A stretch of DNA of 64,000 bases from Pseudomonas azotoformans. Lineage in GTDB: Bacteria > Pseudomonadota > Gammaproteobacteria > Pseudomonadales > Pseudomonadaceae. The notes below the pieces were generated by a model. That model was not told the origin of the DNA. It saw only the letters and a program-made list of their open reading frames with translations, and ran no database searches. Shown here one piece after another: positions 51,646 to 63,609 of this stretch; the first letter of the stretch is position 1, and the number at the start of each line of letters is the position of its first letter. Where the stretch lies: NCBI RefSeq assembly GCF_001579805.1, contig NZ_CP014546.1:5828001-5892000 (forward strand). Reading direction: 5' to 3'. Made by a program: the position numbers and the translations under genes.

Positions 51646-52182
51646 TCACCGCTTGGGTGACAAGCCGATGGCACACGCAACCACCGCCGGGTCTCCCAGG
51701 TAGGTGGTTCGCGTGGCAATCGACAGCCTGCTCGTACGCGGCGCCGCACCGTCCGTATCCACGGCTCGCAACGTCGGCCGCTCCACCGATGGCACGGCGT
51801 GCGCCGGGTCGACGATTTCCATGCAGCGGCGCAACGAGTTGAAGTCCGGTGACTGTGACAGCGCCAAATGCAGGGTCTGGCTCACGGACACGGAGACCAG
51901 CGAACTCTGCGCGCATTGCCCGTCATAGATCAGCGTATGGCGAATCAGTCGGTTGTCGTGGCAGTACTTCAGCAGGTTCACCTGTCGCGAGCGCACCAGC
52001 GCAGTGTCGATGATCAACAGGTCGAATGCCACGCCTTCCGAGCGCGTCAACGCTTGCAGCTCATCGAAGGAACTCAGCGGGGCGATGCGGTAATAGCCCA
52101 GCTGGTTGAGCATTTTCTCGATCTTGATTCGCTGCAGTAGGTCCGCATCGGCAATCAGCAGGCGTAACGCTTTATTGGGCAT
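51646..52182 (-). CDS. Receiver-only response regulator beside the fimbrial locus
   Basis: 178 residues from ATG 52182. The N-terminal 120 residues form a CheY-like receiver: LRLLIADADLLQRIKIEKML for the acidic pocket and FDLLIIDTALV for the phosphoacceptor Asp. The conserved Lys near the end is not obvious, and no DNA-binding or enzymatic output domain follows. The last 60 residues look disordered (PSVERPTLRAVDTDGAAPRT). Divergent from the fimbrial chaperone and so probably part of the same phosphorelay, perhaps as a sink or modulator. Confidence 0.6.
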   Translation of the reverse strand: MPNKALRLLIADADLLQRIKIEKMLNQLGYYRIAPLSSFDELQALTRSEGVAFDLLIIDTALVRSRQVNLLKYCHDNRLIRHTLIYDGQCAQSSLVSVSVSQTLHLALSQSPDFNSLRRCMEIVDPAHAVPSVERPTLRAVDTDGAAPRTSRLSIATRTTYLGDPAVVACAIGLSPKR

Positions 52183-52261
52183 AGGGTAAACCTGACAGTT
52201 GGGCATCAGCGTCGATCATTCAACGGTGATCACGGTAACCGTCCGGAACGAGGCCTGACTT

Positions 52262-52275
52262 TAAGGCGAATCTGA
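52262..52275. promoter_or_regulatory. Degenerate RcsB-box-like site
   Basis: TAAGGCGAATCTGA keeps the TAAG(A/G)-N4-TCT(T/G)A spacing of the other sites. It lies 43 bp upstream of the better site at 52305. A 9-bp inverted repeat (GGTAACCGT at 52234-52242 and ACGGTTACC at 52277-52285) brackets it. Confidence 0.35.
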
Positions 52276-52304
52276 AACGGTTACCCTGGGCATGCCGGTT
52301 CTTT

Positions 52305-52318
52305 TAAGAATCGCCTCA
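52305..52318. promoter_or_regulatory. RcsB-box-like motif upstream of the chaperone-adhesin operon
   Basis: TAAGAATCGCCTCA, matching the 14-bp motif found also at 54082 and 62101. The 5' part TAAGAATCG is identical to the site before the major pilin. It lies 71 bp upstream of the chaperone ATG. Confidence 0.55.
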
Positions 52319-52388
52319 AAGCCTTTCCCTCCAAGCCTCCCTACCATGGCCCGCGTCTCGAACGCCGCCATGGAATTTCTCTGTGTTC

Positions 52389-53069
52389 ATGTTTCTACTG
52401 CGCCTACTGCTGCTGACCGGCGTACTGCTGACCCTCGCACCGCCGGCCCGGGCGGCACTGAAAATCGAAGGCACGCGCCTGATCTACCTGGGCCAGGACA
52501 GGGGCGCCACCATCGGTGTGGTCAACCAGGCCGCCCGCGAAGTGGTGGTGCAAACCTGGATCAGTGGCGAAGACACACCGCCCAATGGCGACGTCCCTTT
52601 TGTCGCCACCGAACCCCTGGTTCGGCTAGGGCCCGGCGAGCATCACCAACTGCGCATCCTGTACGCCGGCGAGGGGTTGCCCACACACCGTGAATCGCTG
52701 TTCTGGCTCAACATCCTGGAAATCCCGCTCAAGCCCGACAGCCCCAACAGCGTGCAGTTCGCGATCCGCCAACGCCTCAAGCTGTTCTATCGCCCGCCGA
52801 CGCTGGCCGGCGGTTCGGCGCAAGCGGTGCAGCAGTTGGTCTGGAGCACGGACGGGCGCCGTGTCACGGTCAGCAATCCCAGTGCGTTTCACGTGTCGCT
52901 GGTCAACCTGCACGCCGACACCTGGGCCCTCAGTGATTACCTGCTGCTCAAGCCCAACGAGCGCAAAACCCTGGACGCACCGGGCGCGATCATCAAAGGC
53001 ACCCCCCTCCACTTCACCGAAATCACCGATATCGGCTTGCAGGCCCGCCACAGCGCGGTGCTCAAGTGA
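52389..53069 (+). CDS. Periplasmic fimbrial chaperone (PapD-like) 1
   Basis: 226 residues from ATG 52389. Sec signal ending PPARA, then two immunoglobulin-like domains. PapD hallmarks: IEGTRLIYLGQDRGATIGVV, ILYAGEGLPTHRESLFWLNI (the L-Y-G...P..RES.FWLN core) and IRQRLKLFYRPP with the donor-strand Arg and Lys. It chaperones fimbrial subunits to the usher. Here it is paired with the tip-adhesin gene that follows. Confidence 0.88.
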   Translation: MFLLRLLLLTGVLLTLAPPARAALKIEGTRLIYLGQDRGATIGVVNQAAREVVVQTWISGEDTPPNGDVPFVATEPLVRLGPGEHHQLRILYAGEGLPTHRESLFWLNILEIPLKPDSPNSVQFAIRQRLKLFYRPPTLAGGSAQAVQQLVWSTDGRRVTVSNPSAFHVSLVNLHADTWALSDYLLLKPNERKTLDAPGAIIKGTPLHFTEITDIGLQARHSAVLK

Positions 53070-53092
53070 TAGACCGCGAGGTATTTGCACCT

Positions 53093-54073
53093 ATGTCACT
53101 CACCCGACGACTTCTGCCGATGCTGCTCTGGGCCTGCGCGGCCCTACCGGCCACCAGTCACGCGCTGGCCTGTCGAGAAGACGGCAGCGGCTCGATCATC
53201 ACCCAGGAAGCGCTGGGGACCGCGCTGGCGGTGGCCGCCGATGCGCCCAACGGCACCATCATCTGGGAGTCCGGCCCGCGCACGACAAATGTGATCTGCA
53301 AGGACGACTACAACCATGGCCGTGAAGAGGTGTATTTCTACGTCAACCCGGCCAACGTGAGTATCGGCACCGGTATCCGCGTGGGCATCCGCTACAACAA
53401 CCAGCCGATCACCCAGAGCACCGGCAAGGTCGGCACCGGGTTCTTTTCCGACCGGGGCTGCACCGCCAACTGTGTGGGCTGGGACAAGGCGCGCTTTACC
53501 CTCAACTTCAGTGTCTTCATCGAGAAATACGACCCTACGCCACCCAGTGGCCAGGCCAGTACGCTGACCTCCTATCGCGTGTTCCAGCTGGACGGCGTGC
53601 GTGGCCTCAACTCACGGCCCAACAGCAATTTCAACTACGTGGTGACGGGCATGAACGGCATCCGATTCGTGCCCTGTACGCCGGAGCTGACCATCACCCC
53701 CAGCGTGGTCAACTTCCCGACGCCTTCGCGCAAAGCGGCGATCGGTGAAGTCGCCAGCACCGCGAACTTCAGCCTGAACCTGCGCAAGGGTTGCGACACG
53801 CCCTACACCGTCAGTGCGCGCTTCGCGACCACGCCGGGCGGTGGCGCAGTGGTCAATGGCCTGCTGGTACCGGACAACAACAACTCCGTGGGCATCGCAT
53901 TATCCCGCGCGGAGAGCCAGCAACAGCTGCCTTTCAACAACTGGTTTACGTTGCAGGAACTGATGGGGCTGGGCCAGAGCCACGATGAATTCCGTGCCGA
54001 CCTGAAATGGCGCACCCTGCCGATCCCCGGCGCGTTTGACGCCGCCGTGGTGGTCGATATGTATTACAAATAG
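53093..54073 (+). CDS. Two-domain fimbrial tip adhesin
   Basis: 326 residues from ATG 53093 (GAGG about ten bases upstream). Signal peptide ends ATSHA. The N-terminal half has paired cysteines (ACREDG, NVICKDD, DRGCTANCVG), as in receptor-binding lectin domains. The C-terminal half (from LTITPSVVNFPTPSRKAAIG) is a pilin domain with C...C and terminal donor strand FDAAVVVDMYYK. This two-domain layout and the low copy position fit a tip adhesin. Confidence 0.78.
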   Translation: MSLTRRLLPMLLWACAALPATSHALACREDGSGSIITQEALGTALAVAADAPNGTIIWESGPRTTNVICKDDYNHGREEVYFYVNPANVSIGTGIRVGIRYNNQPITQSTGKVGTGFFSDRGCTANCVGWDKARFTLNFSVFIEKYDPTPPSGQASTLTSYRVFQLDGVRGLNSRPNSNFNYVVTGMNGIRFVPCTPELTITPSVVNFPTPSRKAAIGEVASTANFSLNLRKGCDTPYTVSARFATTPGGGAVVNGLLVPDNNNSVGIALSRAESQQQLPFNNWFTLQELMGLGQSHDEFRADLKWRTLPIPGAFDAAVVVDMYYK

Positions 54074-54081
54074 CTGACTTT

Positions 54082-54095
54082 TAAGGATCGTCTTA
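54082..54095. promoter_or_regulatory. RcsB-box-like motif upstream of the first hybrid kinase
   Basis: TAAGGATCGTCTTA: arms TAAGG/TCTTA around ATCG. It lies nine bases after the adhesin stop and 36 bp before the kinase ATG, the only non-coding stretch available as a regulatory site there. Confidence 0.55.
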
Positions 54096-54130
54096 TGCCA
54101 TCGGTGTCGGCCGGCACTTAAAGTCTGCCG

Positions 54131-56921
<2,791 letters not shown>

Positions 56922-56935
<14 letters not shown>

Positions 56936-58115
56936 TATTTTGATCGTCGAGGACCATCCTCTGCAGCACATCTACTTGCAGCACCTGCTCAGTGAGTTGG
57001 GGGATTTCATGCTCGAAGCCGCCCAGGATGGCAAAGAAGCGCTGGAACGTCTTCGCCAACGGGACTTCGACCTGGTGCTCACCGACCTGCTGATGCCCGG
57101 CATGGACGGTGTGCAATTCATTCAAAGCCTGGCCAGCCTGCGCTGCAAGCCGGCACTGGCAATCATGAGCGTGGCGTCGCGGCGTATGTTGATGGCCGCC
57201 AGCCTGGTGGCCAAGAACCTGGACGTGGAAGTGATCGGGCTGATCTCCAAACCGGTGGCTGCCGACGCCCTGCGTAGCCTGGTCGAGCAACTCAGGCACA
57301 AGATGCGCACGCCCTCTCCTCTGCCGACCAAACACCTCGACATCGACCGTCACACGCTGATCCAGGCCATGGGCAACGGCCAGTTGCAAGCCTGGTTCCA
57401 ACCCAAGAAGTCCCTGGCCAACGGTCGCATCGTCGCCGCCGAAGCACTGGTGCGCTGGATGCACCCCGAGCAAGGCGTGATGTTGCCCGGCGCCTTTCTG
57501 GAGGCGATCAAAGCCTTCGAACTGGAAGAGCGCCTGTTGTGGCTGGTACTCAAGCAAGCAATCTACGCGCAAAAACAATGGTGCCTGCGCGGCTATGACA
57601 TCCCGGTGTCGATCAACCTGCCGACCCATTTACTCAACAGCCATGATCTGGCCGACCGTTTGCTGGAGTTCGTGCTGCTGCACGACGGCATCCCCGGCAT
57701 GATCTGTTTCGAGCTGATGGAGTGCTCGGTGCCCCAGGACATCAGCAACTTCTACGCCGGTGCCTGCCGCCTGCGGATCAAGGGATTTGGCTTGTCCCAG
57801 GATGATTTCGGCAAAGGCTACAGCTCGTACCTCAACCTGGTCTCCACGCCGTTTACCGAACTCAAGATCGACCAGGCGCTGGTCCAGGGCTGCCACGACA
57901 ACGAAGGCATGGCATCGGCCCTGGCGAGCATCATCAGCCTGGGCCGCAAGCTGGGCCTGACCGTGGTCGCCGAAGGGGTGGAAACCCCACAACAACTGGC
58001 CCTGCTGCGCAAGATCGACTGCAACCAGGTGCAGGGGTTCTTGATCTCCCACGCGGTATCTTCCGAACAATTTCAACAACTTCTGAACAATGATGGCCCC
58101 GCGACATCTCATTAG
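56922..58115 (+). CDS. RocR-like response regulator with EAL phosphodiesterase domain
   Basis: 397 residues (RocR is about 392). Receiver with Asp55 in LVLTDLLMPGMDG, then an EAL domain. E174 is in AAEALVRW, N in VSINLPTHLL, E in CFELMECSV, the two Asp in DDFGKGYSS (Lys replaces the usual Thr/Ala of loop 6), K in LKIDQALV, and VVAEGVET then QVQGFLISH. The metal and catalytic residues are present, so cyclic-di-GMP hydrolysis is likely. In P. aeruginosa RocR antagonises RocA1 control of cupC fimbriae. It starts inside the kinase gene. Confidence 0.87.
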
Positions 58116-58197
58116 GCGCCAGGCACGGATCTTTTGTTGCAGAGAGGGGCTAAGCTCCATCCAGTGCCGATTTTTTCTCCGCCTGCGGACGTCCTTG

Positions 58198-61100
58198 ATG
58201 AAGCACAACAACGCGATCCTCGAAGCCTTCACCCGAAGCTCATTGCGCTTGAACAAAGGCCTGATGCTGATGTTCGGGGTCGCGTTGCTGCTGGCCCTCA
58301 CCAACTACTGGTCGCTGCAACGCGGCGTCGATATCCGCTATGGCGCCATGCGGTTTCACTTCGCCCGACTGATGGAAAACCTGGCGCAGCAGGAAGCGTT
58401 CCTCAAGAACTTGGCGCATCCCGGCATCCAGGCCGAATTGTTGCGCGCCACCAACGTCCAAGTCAGCCTCAAAAGCCGTATGGTCGACACTCGTCGCACC
58501 TTGTACGAGGGCCAGAAGTACTCATTCTCAGTGCCATTCAGCGTGGCGTTCGATGAGCAGCGCGTGGGTGTCAGCGCCCGGCCGCGGATATTCGCGTTGG
58601 GCGCTCATCTCACCAGTTACTACAGTGCCTTTTGGTCCTCCTCGCCGTACGGGGCGCCACAGACGTTCGTGTTCAACCGCCAGGCGAATTACGCCATTGA
58701 TATCCCCGCCGTGGACTCGCCGCCGGGGCGGGTCAACGCGGTGCAGGAAGCCCTGGCGCAGACGCCGCCGGGCCTGGAACCCGAGCGCGTGTACTGGCAG
58801 GCCGGGCCCGCGCCTGAGCATTTGCTGGCCTATATGGGTATTGCGCTCGACGGCCCGGACTCGGCTGTGGTCGGCACGCTGCTGGACCTGGCCCAGGCCG
58901 ACGACGTACAGCGCGCGCTGGAGCGCTCTGCGTTTGATCGCATCACGTTGATTGCCCCTGACGGTCATCGGCTGATCGGACCGGAAGTCGTTGGAGCGCC
59001 GCTCAGCGACGGCGTGCACTTCACCTCGAACGGTTTCGAATTCAAGATTTCCCAAACCGGTGACCAGCCCTGGAGCGCGATCTATGGCTTGAGTTACGCA
59101 CGTTATTTCCACTACGCCGTGTGGCCGCTGAGCAGCCTGGCCTTGTTCCTGGGCAGCCTGCTGGCGCTGGGATGGGCTGGCAGCCGCTGGTATCGGCGCC
59201 AAGTGATTGCACCGGCACGCCTGGCCCACGAGCACATTGCCGAAAGCGTGGCGTTCAGCCGCGTGATCATCGACACCGCCCCCACCGGGCTATGCGTGGT
59301 GCGCCGCAGCGACGGCGAAGTGTTGATCGAGAACCAGCGCGCCCAGCAATGGCCGGGCACCGCACGCCTGGTCGCGGCCATGGCCGGCGCCCACGACAGT
59401 GCCGAGAGCGGCGAGACACACCTGGAGATCGAAGGCCGTCACCTGCAGATCGGTTTCGTGTCCACACGTTATCAGGCGCAGGACGTGCGCCTGTATGCGT
59501 TCAATGACATCACCCGGCACATCGAGGATGCTTCGGCGCTGGAAGACGCACGCCGCGTCGCCGACGCAGCCAACGAAGCCAAGACCCTGTTCCTGGCGAC
59601 CATGAGCCATGAAATCCGCACGCCTCTGTATGGCGTGCTTGGCACCTTGGAGTTGTTGGGCCTGACCGACCTGGACCCGCATCAGAAAACCTACCTGCAC
59701 ACCATCCAGCGCTCGTCCGCCACGCTGTTCCAGCTGATCAGCGATGTGTTGGATGTGTCGAAAATCGAGTCCGGGCAAATGGCGATCGAGGCCGTGGAAT
59801 TCTGCCCGCTGGACATGCTCGAAGACACCCTGCACACCTACGCCGCCTTCGCCCAGCGCAAGGGCCTGCAACTCTACAGTTGCATCGACCCGCAGCTGCC
59901 GGACAGCGTCATGGGCGACCCGCTGCGTATCCGCCAGATCTTGAACAACCTGGTGAGCAATGCGATCAAGTTCACCGACATCGGCCGCGTGGTGATCCGT
60001 GCCAGGGTGCGCGCGCACGACGCTGAGCAGGTGGAGCTGGAATGGCAGGTGACCGACTCCGGCGTGGGCATCGCGCAGGCACAGCAGGCCAAACTGTTCG
60101 ATCTCTTTTACCAGGCTCCGGACACCGCAGGTGAAGGCGGTGCGGGCTTGGGGCTGCCCATCTGCCGGTGGCTGGCGCAGATGATGGACGGCCAGATCAA
60201 GGTCGTCAGCGAGCCCGGACTGGGCAGCAGCTTTACCTTGAAAATCCGCTTGCCGGTGTGTGCCGCTGCGCTGACGAATCTGCCCCTGGTGGAACCCAGC
60301 ACGACGCCGGTGTATGTGCAGGCGCCGGTGCGTGAATTGGCGCAATCGATGTGCGACTGGCTCAACCGCTTGGGCATTGCAGCCGCCGTGGCTGCGCCGA
60401 CCCAGGAACCGGTGGCCCATTGCGCCGTGCTGGTGGATATGTTGCCCGATCAACCTGCGCGACCCTGGATCGGCCAACGCGTCATCTGCCTGCCGGGCGC
60501 CCACAGCCCACCCTTGCCGACTGAGCAGGGATGGGTGGTCGACATGCACGATGTGCGGGCCATTGCCGCCACCGTATCCCTGGCGCAGCACGGCAAGCAC
60601 GAACCACCACCGGCGGCCCAGCCACAGAGCGCCGGACGCTTGGGGCTGCGCATCCTTGTGGCCGAAGACAACCCGATCAACCAGGCCATCATCAAGGAGC
60701 AACTGGAAGCACTCGGCTGCTCGGTGAGCCTGGCCTCGAACGGCGAACAGGCCTTGCATCTGTGGCAACCGCAGGCCTTCGACCTGGTGCTGACCGACGT
60801 GAACATGCCCTTGATGAACGGCTACGAACTCGCCAGGACCCTGCGCGAACACGCGCCCCGCTTGCCGATCATCGGCGTCACGGCCAATGCCATGCGCGAA
60901 GAAGGCGTGCGCTGCCTGGCTGTCGGCATGAATGCCTGGCTGGTCAAGCCCCTGAGCCTGCAAACCCTGCGCGCGCAGTTGATCAAGCTGTGCAAGGTAG
61001 CACCGCCCACCGAAACCTTTGACGACACCGTGCACCTCTCGGACAAGATGCGCCCGCTGTTTATCAGCAGTGTGCAACAGGACCTGCTGCATATTGGCGA

Positions 61101-61329
61101 AGCGCTGGAACAGCGCGATGCCCACCGCCTCGGCCAACGCCTGCATTCAGTCGCCGGTGCCCTGGGCGCGGTGCAGGCCAACAGCCTGGCCCAGGCCTGT
61201 ATCGAACTGGAAAGCGCACTTAACCGTGGCAGCCTCGACACTGCGCTGACGCTCAAGGTGAAGACGGTCATGCAACGCCTCTCGGCCGTCCTGGATACGC
61301 TCCAGCCCGGGCCCACTCCCCTCACTTGA
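58198..61329 (+). CDS. Hybrid sensor histidine kinase with Hpt (RocS1-like)
   Basis: 1043 residues from ATG 58198; the ribosome site is poor and an upstream start cannot be excluded. Two TM segments flank a periplasmic sensor. HisKA His471 in SHEIRTPLYG, HATPase motifs (NNLVSNAIKFTD, VTDSGVGI, GGAGLGLPIC), receiver Asp867 in LVLTDVNMPLMNGYEL, and a C-terminal Hpt with His983 in RLHSVAGALGAVQANSL. This is a full unorthodox kinase. It is a clear paralogue of the kinase at 54131 but is the only one with Hpt. The RcsB-like regulator follows 23 bp later. Confidence 0.87.
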   Translation: MKHNNAILEAFTRSSLRLNKGLMLMFGVALLLALTNYWSLQRGVDIRYGAMRFHFARLMENLAQQEAFLKNLAHPGIQAELLRATNVQVSLKSRMVDTRRTLYEGQKYSFSVPFSVAFDEQRVGVSARPRIFALGAHLTSYYSAFWSSSPYGAPQTFVFNRQANYAIDIPAVDSPPGRVNAVQEALAQTPPGLEPERVYWQAGPAPEHLLAYMGIALDGPDSAVVGTLLDLAQADDVQRALERSAFDRITLIAPDGHRLIGPEVVGAPLSDGVHFTSNGFEFKISQTGDQPWSAIYGLSYARYFHYAVWPLSSLALFLGSLLALGWAGSRWYRRQVIAPARLAHEHIAESVAFSRVIIDTAPTGLCVVRRSDGEVLIENQRAQQWPGTARLVAAMAGAHDSAESGETHLEIEGRHLQIGFVSTRYQAQDVRLYAFNDITRHIEDASALEDARRVADAANEAKTLFLATMSHEIRTPLYGVLGTLELLGLTDLDPHQKTYLHTIQRSSATLFQLISDVLDVSKIESGQMAIEAVEFCPLDMLEDTLHTYAAFAQRKGLQLYSCIDPQLPDSVMGDPLRIRQILNNLVSNAIKFTDIGRVVIRARVRAHDAEQVELEWQVTDSGVGIAQAQQAKLFDLFYQAPDTAGEGGAGLGLPICRWLAQMMDGQIKVVSEPGLGSSFTLKIRLPVCAAALTNLPLVEPSTTPVYVQAPVRELAQSMCDWLNRLGIAAAVAAPTQEPVAHCAVLVDMLPDQPARPWIGQRVICLPGAHSPPLPTEQGWVVDMHDVRAIAATVSLAQHGKHEPPPAAQPQSAGRLGLRILVAEDNPINQAIIKEQLEALGCSVSLASNGEQALHLWQPQAFDLVLTDVNMPLMNGYELARTLREHAPRLPIIGVTANAMREEGVRCLAVGMNAWLVKPLSLQTLRAQLIKLCKVAPPTETFDDTVHLSDKMRPLFISSVQQDLLHIGEALEQRDAHRLGQRLHSVAGALGAVQANSLAQACIELESALNRGSLDTALTLKVKTVMQRLSAVLDTLQPGPTPLT

Positions 61330-61352
61330 ACTGGCACTACGGACGGCCCCTT

Positions 61353-62001
61353 ATGAAAACATTCAACGTGGTTATCGCGGACGATCACCCGATCGTGCTG
61401 CTCGGGGTGCGCGAACTGGTAGAGCGCGACACGCGCTTCCAGGTCGTGGGCGAAGCCGTCTGTTCGGCCGGCCCTGATCGAGTTGCTGCAGCGCCAGGGT
61501 GCCGACATCGTGATCACCGACTACAACATGCCGGGCGACTCGCCCTACGGCGATGGCCTGAAGCTGGTGGAGTACCTGAAACGGCATTTCCCACAGGTGC
61601 AGATCCTGATCCTGACGATGATCTCCAACCACCTGATCCTCACCCGTCTGCAGGAACTGGGGGTGGTCGGCATCATCCAGAAAAGCCAGCTGCACACCGA
61701 GATCCAGCTGGCACTCAAGGCCATCGCCCAGCAAAGCGCCTATCGCAGCCTGGAACCGCCCAAGACGTCGGTGATCGAGACCCTCACCGCCATCGACGAA
61801 CGCTTCTCGACGTTGTCACCCAAGGAGTTCGAAATCCTGCGTTTGTTTATCTCGGGCATGAGTGTCAGTGATATTGCGCGCAGCCAGAACCGAAGTTCCA
61901 AGACCATCAGCGCACAAAAAATATCGGCCATGCGCAAACTTGAAGTCAGCAGCGATCAAGACCTTCTGGCGTATTGCCTGGCGCGCAACATCTTCAACTA
62001 A
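61353..62001 (+). pseudogene. RcsB/RocA-like response regulator, frameshifted
   Basis: Two adjoining frames together give a complete NarL/RcsB-type regulator. Frame one: MKTFNVVIADDHPIVLLGVR to VVGEAVCSAG. Frame two, from about 61474: ALIELLQRQGADIVITDYNM, then GDGLKLVEYLKRHFPQVQIL, and HTH STLSPKEFEILRLFISG with RSSKTISAQKISAMRKLEV, very close to RcsB. Removing one G from the GGCCGGCC at 61466-61473 restores SAALIELL with exact RcsB spacing. As written, translation leaves the frame and stops at 61871 without the HTH. A sequencing error or a real inactivating mutation are both possible. The run is not a homopolymer and no slippery site is visible. Confidence 0.8.
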
Positions 62002-62100
62002 GCAATCACTTTAAAGCCATTCAAGGACAATGGCTTCCCCCTTTATCTACTGGCCTTGACCTTTCCATAAGTGCAACTAACCCTGCCTCTTCGGCGCTTA

Positions 62101-62114
62101 TAAGAATCGTCTTA
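62101..62114. promoter_or_regulatory. RcsB-box-like motif upstream of the major pilin
   Basis: TAAGAATCGTCTTA: perfect inverted arms TAAGA and TCTTA around ATCG, 81 bp upstream of the pilin start. The E. coli RcsB box is TAAGAATATTCCTA-like, with the same arm and spacer lengths. The regulator encoded immediately upstream has an RcsB-like HTH. Confidence 0.6.
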
Positions 62115-62195
62115 TTTGCCCGCCCGCCCTCGCCTCTTACTATTTCCCGGCAGTTCAGAAACCGCACTTTCCAACTCACACTTATGGACATCATC

Positions 62196-62801
62196 ATGAA
62201 GAAGTTCTCCCTGGCTGTTATCACTTCGGCCATTCTTTGCGCCTCCGGCAGCGCATTCGCCGAAGAGCCGGTTGTACCGAAGCCAACCCTCGGCGGCAGC
62301 GGCAAAATCACCTTCACCGGCGTGATCAACAACGACGCTTGCTCGGTGGACGGCGCCAACTCCGACCGCACCATTTCGGTAGACATGGGCAACGTCTCGA
62401 TCAAGGACATGGGCACTGCCGAGAACCCAACTGCCGGCCGTGTGACCGCCAAAGACTTCAACCTGAACGTCAACTGCAACCAGGGCACCAAAGTCGCGAT
62501 GATTTTTGACGCCAACAACGGTGGTTCGGGCCTGGTGACGGGCAAGAACGTGCTGGCACTGAACCCAGGTTCGGCCACCGCGCAAAACGTCGGCATCGCC
62601 CTGCTCGACAGCAAGGGCACGTTGATCGACCTCAGCTCCCCGGCCACCGCACGTATCGAAAGCACCATGCATGGCCAGGGCACCGAAGGCGGCGACGCCA
62701 CCCTGAGCTTTGCCGCCGCCTACGTCACCACCGGTGCCGCCGGCGCATCGACGGCCGGTCGCGGTGACGCCACCCTGCCGTTCATCCTGCAATACGAATA
62801 A
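62196..62801 (+). CDS. Major fimbrial subunit (type 1/CupC1-like pilin)
   Basis: 201 residues from ATG 62196 (ATG 62184 in frame is an alternative). Signal peptide ends GSAFA. Mature pilin fold: GKITFTGVINNDACSVDG with the first Cys, KDFNLNVNCNQGTKVAMIFD with the second, and C-terminal ATLPFILQYE with the penultimate tyrosine used in donor-strand exchange. Followed by a hairpin terminator before the chaperone gene, as expected for an abundant subunit. Confidence 0.87.
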   Translation: MKKFSLAVITSAILCASGSAFAEEPVVPKPTLGGSGKITFTGVINNDACSVDGANSDRTISVDMGNVSIKDMGTAENPTAGRVTAKDFNLNVNCNQGTKVAMIFDANNGGSGLVTGKNVLALNPGSATAQNVGIALLDSKGTLIDLSSPATARIESTMHGQGTEGGDATLSFAAAYVTTGAAGASTAGRGDATLPFILQYE

Positions 62802-62825: not shown

Positions 62826-62855
62826 GCGAGGCCCTGCGGCCTCGCCATTCTTTTT
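62826..62855 (+). terminator. Intra-operon terminator/attenuator after the major pilin
   Basis: GCGAGGCC-CTGC-GGCCTCGC is a perfect eight-pair stem followed by CATTCTTTTT. It lies 24 bp after the pilin stop and 22 bp before the chaperone start. Partial read-through would keep pilin mRNA in excess over chaperone and usher. Confidence 0.7.
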
Positions 62856-62877: not shown

Positions 62878-63609
62878 ATGCTGCCTCGTTCTCTCGCCGT
62901 GGGCCTCGGGCTGCTGGGCATGCTCATGGCTGCCCAGGCCGCCGCCAGCATTTCATTGAATGCCACCCGTATTGTGTTCGATGGCGACCACAAAGAAGCC
63001 AACATCACCGTGCGTAACGGTAACCAGGATGTGTTGATCCAGTCCTGGGTCGACCGCAACGATGCCAGCGGCAGCCGCGCGCCGTTCGCCGTTACCCCGC
63101 CGTTGGCACGGGTGTTTGCCAAGGAACAGCAACTGCTGCGCATCTTGTATGAAGGCGCCGGCATGCCCACCGACCGCGAGTCGGTGGTCTGGCTCAACGT
63201 GCAGGAAATCCCCAAGGCCAGCGCCGCCGAAAACACCTTGCAGTTGGCCATCCGCCAACGCATCAAGATTTTTTTCCGCCCTGCCGGCTTGCCTGGCAGT
63301 GCGTTGCAAGCCCCTGCCCAGCTGGAGTGGGCGCTGACCAAACGCGGCGCGCAAACCCTGCTGAACGTGAAAAACCCGACGCTGTATCACGTGTCCATGG
63401 CCGACATAAAGGTGCAGGCGCAACTGGCCAGTGACTCCACCATGGTCGCCCCAGGCGAGGAAAAACAGTTCCCGCTGAACGCTCCGGTGGCCGCTGGCAC
63501 GGTGCAGTTGTCGTTCTCCAGCATCAATGACTACGGCGCGCAGAACCATTACACCGCCGCCCTGGCGAGTGGCACTGCACACGCCACTGAGTCACGCCTC
63601 AAACCCTGA
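62878..63609 (+). CDS. Periplasmic fimbrial chaperone (PapD-like) 2
   Basis: 243 residues. Signal peptide ends AAQAAA; then SISLNATRIVFDGDHKEANI, ILYEGAGMPTDRESVVWLNV, LQLAIRQRIKIFFRPAGLPG and LLNVKNPTLYHVSMADIKVQ. All PapD core residues, including the Arg and Lys of the donor cleft, are present. It serves the pilin and usher of this operon. It is clearly related to but distinct from the chaperone at 52389. Confidence 0.9.
   Translation: MLPRSLAVGLGLLGMLMAAQAAASISLNATRIVFDGDHKEANITVRNGNQDVLIQSWVDRNDASGSRAPFAVTPPLARVFAKEQQLLRILYEGAGMPTDRESVVWLNVQEIPKASAAENTLQLAIRQRIKIFFRPAGLPGSALQAPAQLEWALTKRGAQTLLNVKNPTLYHVSMADIKVQAQLASDSTMVAPGEEKQFPLNAPVAAGTVQLSFSSINDYGAQNHYTAALASGTAHATESRLKP

What the first reader, a model, noticed from the sequence alone, without database searches (positions are those of the whole stretch)
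52262..62114. RcsB-box-like 14-bp motif repeated before all three transcription units of the fimbrial/Roc locus
TAAGAATCGCCTCA (52305), TAAGGATCGTCTTA (54082) and TAAGAATCGTCTTA (62101), plus a degenerate copy at 52262, share TAAG(A/G)-N4-(T/C)CT(T/C)A. They lie upstream of chaperone-adhesin, the kinase operon and the pilin operon. The locus encodes a regulator whose HTH (SPKEFEILRLF, KTISAQKISAM) is almost RcsB, and the E. coli RcsB box has the same form. A Pseudomonas Rcs-like regulon with conserved DNA code is implied.
Basis: partly seen in the sequence, partly recalled or inferred. Interest (0 to 1): 0.72.

Follow-up and report, generated by a model that had tools for sequence, protein, structure and literature searches.

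The report
RcsB-type switch of Pseudomonas fimbriae
A short DNA sequence that looks like the landing site of the regulator RcsB sits at one fixed distance from the start signal of every gene group in a Pseudomonas fimbria cluster; sites of this kind are already known in P. aeruginosa, but the rigid spacing and a possible leaderless sensor-kinase message appear to be new.

Summary
The "degenerate" copy at 52262 is a fourth site; it reads best on the minus strand and faces a divergent CheY-like gene. Each site is followed, 23 bp on (24 for the divergent one), by a TAnnnT -10 element. In relatives this geometry is almost invariant: kinase operon 96 of 105 boxes at N23/N24, pilin 64 of 64, chaperone 26 of 26, divergent gene 18 of 18. 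The box tracks the regulator across 298 genomes. RcsB is the regulator's closest kin among solved structures. E. coli rprA shows the same box-N23-TACTAT layout. Best reading: class II-type RcsB activator operators.

Largely known for PA14 cupD: an RcsB site tested by mutation, and autoregulation (PMC3842833). In this genome it is a locus-specific switch, not a regulon, and the regulator's frame is broken; 59 of 60 relatives are intact. New here: the fixed spacing at all four units, and a -10 ending 6 nt before the kinase ATG, predicting a leaderless kinase mRNA (untested).

The parts
52262..52275 (-). RcsB-type box of the divergent receiver-like gene, TCAGATTCGCCTTA
   Evidence: 2 mismatches to the pattern. 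18 of 18 distinct sequences, this window included, have a box of at least 12/14 here with TAnnnT at N23 (5) or N24 (13).
52232..52237 (-). predicted -10 TACCGT of the divergent gene, N24 from the box; predicted +1 at 52225
   Evidence: sequence, coordinates
51646..52206 (-). divergent CheY-like protein (186 aa, or 178 aa from 52182)
   Evidence: no Pfam hit; 147 homologues, 120 listed, most of the named ones CheY or response regulator, one with PF00072
52305..52318 (+). RcsB-type box of the chaperone-adhesin unit, TAAGAATCGCCTCA
   Evidence: exact. 26 of 26 distinct sequences, window included, have a box of at least 12/14 with TAnnnT at N23.
52342..52347 (+). predicted -10 TACCAT, N23; predicted +1 at 52354
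52383..53069 (+). periplasmic fimbrial chaperone
   Evidence: PapD_N, PapD_C
53066..54073 (+). fimbrial adhesin-like protein, no Pfam hit
   Evidence: named by its place in the operon
54082..54095 (+). RcsB-type box of the kinase operon, TAAGGATCGTCTTA, with 8 nt between the adhesin stop and the box
   Evidence: exact. 105 of 110 distinct sequences, window included, have a box of at least 11/14; 104 of these lie 34-36 nt before the kinase start codon.
54119..54124 (+). predicted -10 TAAAGT, N23, ending 6 nt before the kinase ATG
   Evidence: TAnnnT at N23 in 88 and N24 in 8 of 105; the other 9 have CAnnnT at N23
54131..56935 (+). hybrid histidine kinase (PvrS-type); predicted +1 coincides with the A of its ATG (leaderless mRNA, inferred)
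   Evidence: HisKA, HATPase_c, receiver
56907..58115 (+). receiver-EAL phosphodiesterase-type regulator (PvrR/RocR-type)
   Evidence: Response_reg, EAL
58090..61329 (+). unorthodox histidine kinase with Hpt domain (RcsC/RocS1-type)
   Evidence: HisKA, HATPase_c, receiver, Hpt
61353..62001 (+). RcsB-type response regulator, reading frame broken in the receiver domain near 61465; the rest is open from 61483
   Evidence: ORFs; C-terminal piece matches relatives over 172 of 172 residues; 59 of 60 relatives intact, one (L104) also frame-broken
62101..62114 (+). RcsB-type box of the pilin operon, TAAGAATCGTCTTA
   Evidence: exact. 64 of 64 distinct sequences, window included, have a box of at least 12/14; TAnnnT at N23 in 63 and N24 in 1.
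62138..62143 (+). predicted -10 TACTAT, N23; predicted +1 at 62150
62196..62801 (+). major pilin (an alternative start lies at 62184)
   Evidence: Fimbrial domain; start codons
62878..63609 (+). second fimbrial chaperone; an usher-like ORF seems to follow and leave the window
   Evidence: PapD_N, PapD_C; usher by position and by eye only

Best explanation
The motifs are operators for the RcsB-type response regulator of the locus (the PvrS/PvrR/RcsC/RcsB kind). A dimer of the phosphorylated regulator binds the near-palindrome TAAGRATYGYCTKA and touches RNA polymerase at promoters that have a -10 (TAnnnT) but a poor -35. The box abuts the -35 position, which fixes its distance to the -10 at 23 bp (24 at the divergent gene). 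One signal would thus switch on pilin, chaperone and adhesin, the kinase-phosphodiesterase-regulator operon itself (positive feedback, with the EAL protein as a delayed brake), and a receiver-like protein. Shown by computation: the boxes, the fixed geometry, their conservation, and the link to the regulator's presence. Inferred: binding, activation, the feedback and the brake (by analogy with PA14). In the genome of the window the regulator is frame-broken, so the circuit may be off.
For: Box columns carry 1.70 bits on average against 0.43 in the 23-bp spacer and 0.21 upstream, over the 75 distinct loci with a 35-nt box-to-start distance. TAnnnT offsets from 10 to 31 were tallied: kinase 88 of 105 at N23 and 8 at N24, with 1 or 0 at any other offset, and the remaining 9 have CAnnnT at N23; pilin 63 of 64 at N23 and 1 at N24, chaperone 26 of 26 at N23, divergent gene 18 of 18 at N23/N24. 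Exact boxes: 109 in 49 genomes with a regulator at least 65% identical (48 of the 49 have one), 15 in 28 genomes at 50-64%, 23 in 221 genomes without; backwards control 19 in all 298, 6 of them in the 49 (counts). Regulator closest to RcsB among solved structures; K180 equivalent invariant in 15 of 15 orthologs, and K180 and S184 contact a G and two A in the RcsB-DNA structure (PMC5829831, passages). E. coli rprA, which needs RcsB (PMC6298664, passage), has TGAGACGAATCTGA-N23-TACTAT, with the annotated RNA start after 6 more nt. PA14: the RcsB site before cupD1 is needed for promoter function, and RcsB overproduction induces pvrS, pvrR, rcsC and rcsB (PMC3842833).
Against: No binding or expression data for this locus. 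The regulator is broken in this genome, and in one of 60 relatives. The -35 region is slightly better than shuffled (mean 2.91 against 2.44 of 6), so basal, activator-free transcription is possible. E. coli geometry: of four promoters looked at, only rprA is clear, and there the box only ties for the best score; osmC and bdm offer only lower-scoring candidates with TAGTCT or CATGCT at N23, and ftsA offers none. Boxes drift in more distant orthologs: 5 of 110 kinase regions have no box of at least 11/14. Looser patterns show no excess in this genome.
Confidence: 0.87

Rival explanations
1. The operators are real but are used in this strain by another NarL/FixJ-type regulator (a RocA-like paralog), because the local regulator is broken.
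For: RocA1, RocA2 and RocA3 have highly similar DAP-seq motifs and overlapping targets in P. aeruginosa (PMC12051241, passages). The genome has two further relatives at 37-39% identity.
Against: Both paralogs have serine where RcsB and the window's regulator have the base-reading lysine. The box tracks the local regulator across genomes.
Confidence: 0.08
2. The boxes are repressor sites, or the regulator acts by another route, for example by blocking polymerase or relieving a silencer.
For: Enterobacterial RcsB can repress from boxes overlapping promoters (gadA: PMC5651002, passage; csgD: PMC12388358, passages).
Against: Here the box ends upstream of the -10 at one fixed distance and abuts a weak -35, the place of a class II activator site; the PA14 counterpart is an activator site (PMC3842833).
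Confidence: 0.04
3. Chance repeats or translation signals (TAAGGA resembles a Shine-Dalgarno sequence and the box at 54082 runs into an ATG).
For: TAAGGATCGTCTTATG reads like a ribosome-binding site and start. An ATG overlaps the box end in 43 of 105 kinase boxes, and 33 of 105 have both that ATG and GG at positions 4-5. Loose matches are common.
Against: 62 of 105 kinase boxes have no ATG there yet keep the box and the -10. Conservation sits in the box and -10, not in the spacer. Pilin and chaperone boxes lie far from their start codons.
Confidence: 0.01

Closest known systems
PvrSR/RcsCB-CupD locus of P. aeruginosa PA14
   Same: Hybrid kinase, receiver-EAL protein, unorthodox kinase with Hpt and RcsB-type regulator beside a chaperone-usher fimbria cluster; an RcsAB-box-like site about 75 bp before the pilin gene, tested by mutation; RcsB overproduction induces its own four genes (PMC3842833: passages and part 1 of its discussion; PMC2696094: passages).
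   Different: In PA14 the fimbria genes and the four regulatory genes lie in opposite orientations; here all point one way, with the chaperone-adhesin unit upstream and the pilin unit downstream. Here there are boxes at the kinase operon and at a divergent receiver-like gene; whether PA14 has such sites I could not check. The window's regulator is broken.
Roc system (RocS1/RocR/RocA1, RocA2, RocA3) of P. aeruginosa
   Same: Same module types and output (cup fimbriae, c-di-GMP phosphodiesterase); RocA regulators also bind the roc1 locus and the cupB and cupC operons in vitro (PMC12051241, abstract and passages).
   Different: I could not read the RocA motif itself (it is in a supplementary figure) and made no sequence comparison with RocA1-3. 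The regulator here is closer to RcsB in the recognition helix than are the two nearest paralogs of this genome.
Enterobacterial RcsB homodimer and RcsAB box (rprA)
   Same: Consensus TaAGaatatTCcta (PMC4325325, figure legend) agrees with TAAGAATCGTCTTA at 11 of 14 positions; lysine 180 kept; rprA has the same N23 to TACTAT.
   Different: Centre of the box differs; S184 is replaced; RcsA, RcsD and RcsF were not looked for; tied mainly to one fimbria locus instead of an envelope-stress regulon.

Membership tests
RcsB (NarL/FixJ response regulators) | Receiver plus GerE/LuxR HTH with RcsB as nearest solved relative | tested here: met
   Searches (Response_reg, GerE; RcsB E 2e-33, next EvgA 6e-11) on the window's C-terminal piece; intact relative L075 44.7% identical to an E. 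coli RcsB over 97%
RcsB (NarL/FixJ response regulators) | Base-contacting residues K180 and S184 | tested here: inconclusive
   K kept in 15 of 15 orthologs; S184 replaced by A (12) or T (3); contacts from PMC5829831
RcsB (NarL/FixJ response regulators) | Intact receiver in the window's own protein | tested here: not met
   Frame broken near 61465; the first part of the receiver is out of frame with the rest. Relatives: 59 of 60 intact.
RcsB/RcsAB box | 14-bp near-palindrome TaAGaatatTCcta | tested here: met
   11 of 14 for the pilin box, by comparing the sequence with the consensus; arms kept, centre different
RcsB homodimer-type activated promoter | Box immediately upstream of the -35, fixed distance to the -10 | tested here: met
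   rprA comparison; review PMC5651002 places sites upstream of the -35 (passage)
RcsB homodimer-type activated promoter | Binding and activation by the regulator | not testable with these tools
   needs bench work
PvrSR/RcsCB-type cup locus | Hybrid kinase, receiver-EAL, kinase with Hpt and RcsB beside chaperone-usher genes | tested here: met
   the usher itself only by eye
PvrSR/RcsCB-type cup locus | cupD gene order with regulatory genes in the opposite orientation | tested here: not met
   All co-directional here; PA14 order from PMC2696094
Roc system (RocA-type regulator) | Sequence and motif of RocA1-3 | not tested
   No named P. aeruginosa sequence was obtained; motif only in a supplementary figure
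Leaderless mRNA | 5' end at the start codon | not testable with these tools
   Predicted only: -10 ends 6 nt before the start codon in 83 of 105 boxes, 7 nt in 12, 5 nt in 1, no TAnnnT in 9; Shine-Dalgarno-like 4-mer in 5 of 110 against 10% in shuffles

The most novel reading that the evidence does not exclude
The hybrid sensor kinase at the head of the feedback operon is made from a leaderless mRNA whose first base is the A of the start codon, a layout held across the genus because the RcsB box, the -10 and the ATG are locked in register (box, 23 bp, -10, 6 bp, ATG). Feedback strength would then depend on leaderless translation, which differs from normal initiation under stress or 70S-favouring conditions. 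The box-N23-(-10)-N6-(+1) layout would be an RcsB activation geometry older than the split of Pseudomonas and enterobacteria.
Probability: 0.5. Interest if true: 0.6.

Novelty: new member of a known kind. Interest (0 to 1): 0.45.

Why it matters
It turns a site known at one P. aeruginosa promoter into a genus-wide, position-fixed code: box, 23 bp, -10. That allows a strict search for RcsB targets; in relatives it picks out unlinked fimbrial adhesin-like genes and a YadA-like adhesin gene. It also suggests that the kinase gene of a feedback loop is translated without a leader, a directly testable and unusual control point.

Tried and rejected
Chance or Shine-Dalgarno origin of the motif: rejected by conservation and spacing. 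Genome-wide regulon in this strain: 90 of the 91 sites with up to 2 mismatches were read with their flanks (the 91st is the 52262 copy, read). Only the three locus sites and one other (1019351, minus strand, TAGGAATAGTCTTA with TAGGCT at N23) have TAnnnT at N22-24; the background rate is 1.4%, so about 1.2 are expected among the other 87. That one lies 126 bp before a minus-strand ORF of 183 aa that looks to me, by eye, like a cytochrome b561; I treat it as chance, but it was not tested further. Plasmid records for a P. aeruginosa cupD copy: none among the best 15 of 815 records listed; the top hits are enterobacterial rcsB. E. coli ftsA for the same geometry: none. The HT-SELEX atlas PMC8041468 names RcsB in its main text only in the reference list. 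Literature on leaderless messages in this setting: 5 papers, judged from the listing; 0 papers; Nicastro 2009 is known to me only through citations. The Shine-Dalgarno comparison with other genes of the locus is weak, because EAL and adhesin, whose start codons are uncertain, also lack such motifs (0 of 8 and 0 of 11; regulator 37 of 81; first chaperone 8 of 26).

Corrected on checking: I had written that all 60 relatives have an intact regulator (also in notebook entry 2); one, L104, changes frame inside the receiver domain and is open over only 204 codons, so the count is 59 of 60. I had also said that 8 of 9 kinase boxes without TAnnnT carry CAnnnT; it is 9 of 9.

Counting limits: the 60 unnamed and 80 named loci overlap in strains. 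Rows were merged only if the compared upstream sequence was identical, so near-identical relatives still count apart and the counts are not independent events. For the kinase, 131 of 141 loci (60 + 80 + window) had a usable start and gave 110 distinct rows; for 2 of the 110 the assumed start codon is ATT, and where the match did not begin at residue 1 the start was guessed. For pilin (79 loci, 64 distinct), chaperone and divergent gene only loci with a recognisable homologue in place were counted.
Full report
What was checked. The three 14-mers are at 52305, 54082 and 62101 exactly as written. In the window the loose pattern (up to 3 mismatches) is no rarer than chance, 12 hits against 9.06 expected, but in the whole 6,859,618-base genome the three exact matches are the only ones and all lie in this locus; sites with up to 2 mismatches number 91 against 67 for the pattern read backwards, and a looser form shows no excess, 39 against 48. 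The fourth, 'degenerate' copy reads TAAGGCGAATCTGA on the plus strand and TCAGATTCGCCTTA on the minus strand. Of the 17 other distinct sequences at that place, 15 have TCAGAATCGCCTTA, 1 TCAGAATTGCCTTA and 1 TGAGAATTGTCTTA, so it is a conserved site that faces the divergent gene at 51646-52206.

What the surroundings are. Pfam gives: chaperone (52383-53069), an adhesin-like protein without a hit (53066-54073), a hybrid histidine kinase (54131-56935), a receiver-EAL protein (56907-58115), a kinase with an Hpt domain (58090-61329), a response regulator with GerE HTH (C-terminal piece 61483-62001), a fimbrial subunit (62196-62801) and a second chaperone (62878-63609). The divergent protein has no Pfam hit, but 147 homologues (120 listed), most of the named ones called CheY or response regulator. 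This is the module set of PvrS, PvrR, RcsC and RcsB beside CupD in P. aeruginosa PA14 (PMC2696094 and PMC3842833; passages and part 1 of one section read).

The promoter geometry. By eye, and then by script, each plus-strand box is followed after exactly 23 bp by TACCAT, TAAAGT or TACTAT; the minus-strand box is followed after 24 bp by TACCGT. Kinase operon: 141 loci including the window, 131 with a usable start, 110 distinct upstream sequences. 105 have a box of at least 11 of 14, 104 of them 34-36 nt before the start codon (75 at exactly 35). TAnnnT lies at N23 in 88 and N24 in 8, and at any other tested offset in 0 or 1; the remaining 9 have CAnnnT at N23. The reversed pattern never exceeds 11 of 14 there (4 of 110 reach 11). 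Information per column is 1.70 bits in the box, 1.31 in the -10, 0.43 in the spacer and 0.21 upstream, for the 75 loci with a 35-nt distance. Pilin: 64 of 64 distinct sequences (79 loci) have a box of at least 12, with TAnnnT at N23 in 63 and N24 in 1. Chaperone unit: 26 of 26, all N23. Divergent gene: 18 of 18, 5 at N23 and 13 at N24 (window included each time; its reversed controls reach 13 once for pilin and 12 twice for the chaperone unit). In more distant orthologs the box itself drifts, but distances mostly stay.

Link to the regulator. Exact TAAGRATYGYCTKA occurs 147 times in 80 of 298 genomes: 109 times in 49 genomes whose regulator is at least 65% identical (48 of 49 have one), 15 times in 28 genomes at 50-64%, 23 times in 221 genomes without one; the backwards control totals 19, 6 of them in the 49. 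Ninety-four of the 147 lie within 14 kb of the regulator. I fetched 20 of the 53 others: 18 in genomes with the 65% regulator, and 2 elsewhere. Five have TAnnnT at N23 or N24. Of these, two precede fimbrial adhesin-like genes (L312, Pfam Fimbrial; L321 by similar sequence only), one precedes a YadA-like adhesin (L328), one is the kinase gene itself on a fragmented contig (L329), and one is unclear (L326). The other 15 lack the -10. So geometry separates plausible targets from noise. In the window's own genome one further site with the geometry turned up where about 1.2 are expected by chance.

The regulator. Against solved structures the window's piece matches RcsB best (E 2e-33), far ahead of EvgA (6e-11). 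In the E. coli RcsB-DNA structure K180 and S184 make the base contacts (PMC5829831, passages). K180 is kept in 15 of 15 orthologs aligned; S184 is A in 12 and T in 3. The two nearest paralogs in this genome have serine at the K180 place. The regulator's frame is broken in the receiver domain near 61465 in this assembly. Of 60 relatives, 59 read through at 212-215 codons; the sixtieth, L104, also changes frame inside the receiver domain. The other ORFs of the locus are open. Whether the breaks are real or assembly errors cannot be told here.

Comparison with E. coli. The published RcsAB consensus TaAGaatatTCcta (PMC4325325, figure legend) agrees with TAAGAATCGTCTTA at 11 of 14 positions. In E. 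coli MG1655 the rprA promoter has TGAGACGAATCTGA, then 23 bp, TACTAT, then 6 bp and the annotated RNA start. That box ties for the best score in the region; that it is the functional rprA box is recalled, not tested. osmC and bdm give only lower-scoring candidates with TAGTCT or CATGCT at N23, and ftsA gives none. The rprA match therefore supports the geometry but is one clear case in four.

Leaderless kinase message (inferred). Applying the rprA rule (+1 is the seventh base after the -10) to the kinase promoter puts +1 at 54131, the A of the ATG. The -10 ends 6 nt before the start in 83 of 105, 7 nt in 12, 5 nt in 1, with no TAnnnT in 9. The start codon is ATG in 108 of 110. Shine-Dalgarno-like 4-mers occur in 5 of 110 kinase upstreams, against 10% in shuffles, but two other genes of the locus, whose starts are uncertain, lack them too. 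In 84 of 110 there is no in-frame upstream ATG or GTG (26 do have one). No experiment supports this yet, and the -35 region is slightly better than random (2.91 against 2.44 of 6).

What is known and what is new. Known: the RcsB site before cupD1, its mutation, its likeness to the RcsAB box, induction of the regulator's own four genes, and predicted RcsB sites before three receiver genes in PA14 (PMC3842833); similar in vitro motifs for RocA1-3 with targets roc1, cupB and cupC (PMC12051241, passages). New as far as my searches go (PMC open-licence papers only, mostly seen as listings): the one-distance geometry at all four units, its near invariance in the genus, the kinase-operon and divergent sites, and the leaderless prediction.

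Noticed in passing
61353-62001: The RcsB-type regulator is frame-broken in this genome while the promoters it should serve look intact, apart from one extra difference in the box of the divergent gene. One of 60 relatives (L104) shows a separate frame change in the same domain.
   Followed up: partly
62826-62845: Terminator-like stem-loop with a T run between the pilin gene and its chaperone gene; it could set the pilin-to-chaperone ratio. Such hits are not rarer in shuffles.
   Followed up: no
L032 (own genome, 2668619-2672101): A second RocA-like regulator beside a receiver-containing protein and a secreted fimbria-like protein (by eye), with a different recognition helix.
   Followed up: partly
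L312 1501-2539 and L321: Unlinked fimbrial adhesin-like genes in two relatives carry the same box-N23-TAGGGT promoter.
   Followed up: partly
L328: A YadA-like trimeric autotransporter adhesin gene, about 14.6 kb from the regulator, carries box-N23-TATTCT.
   Followed up: partly
L326 around 1501: Exact box with TAnnnT at N24 in front of an unidentified, possibly secreted protein 364 bp downstream.
   Followed up: no
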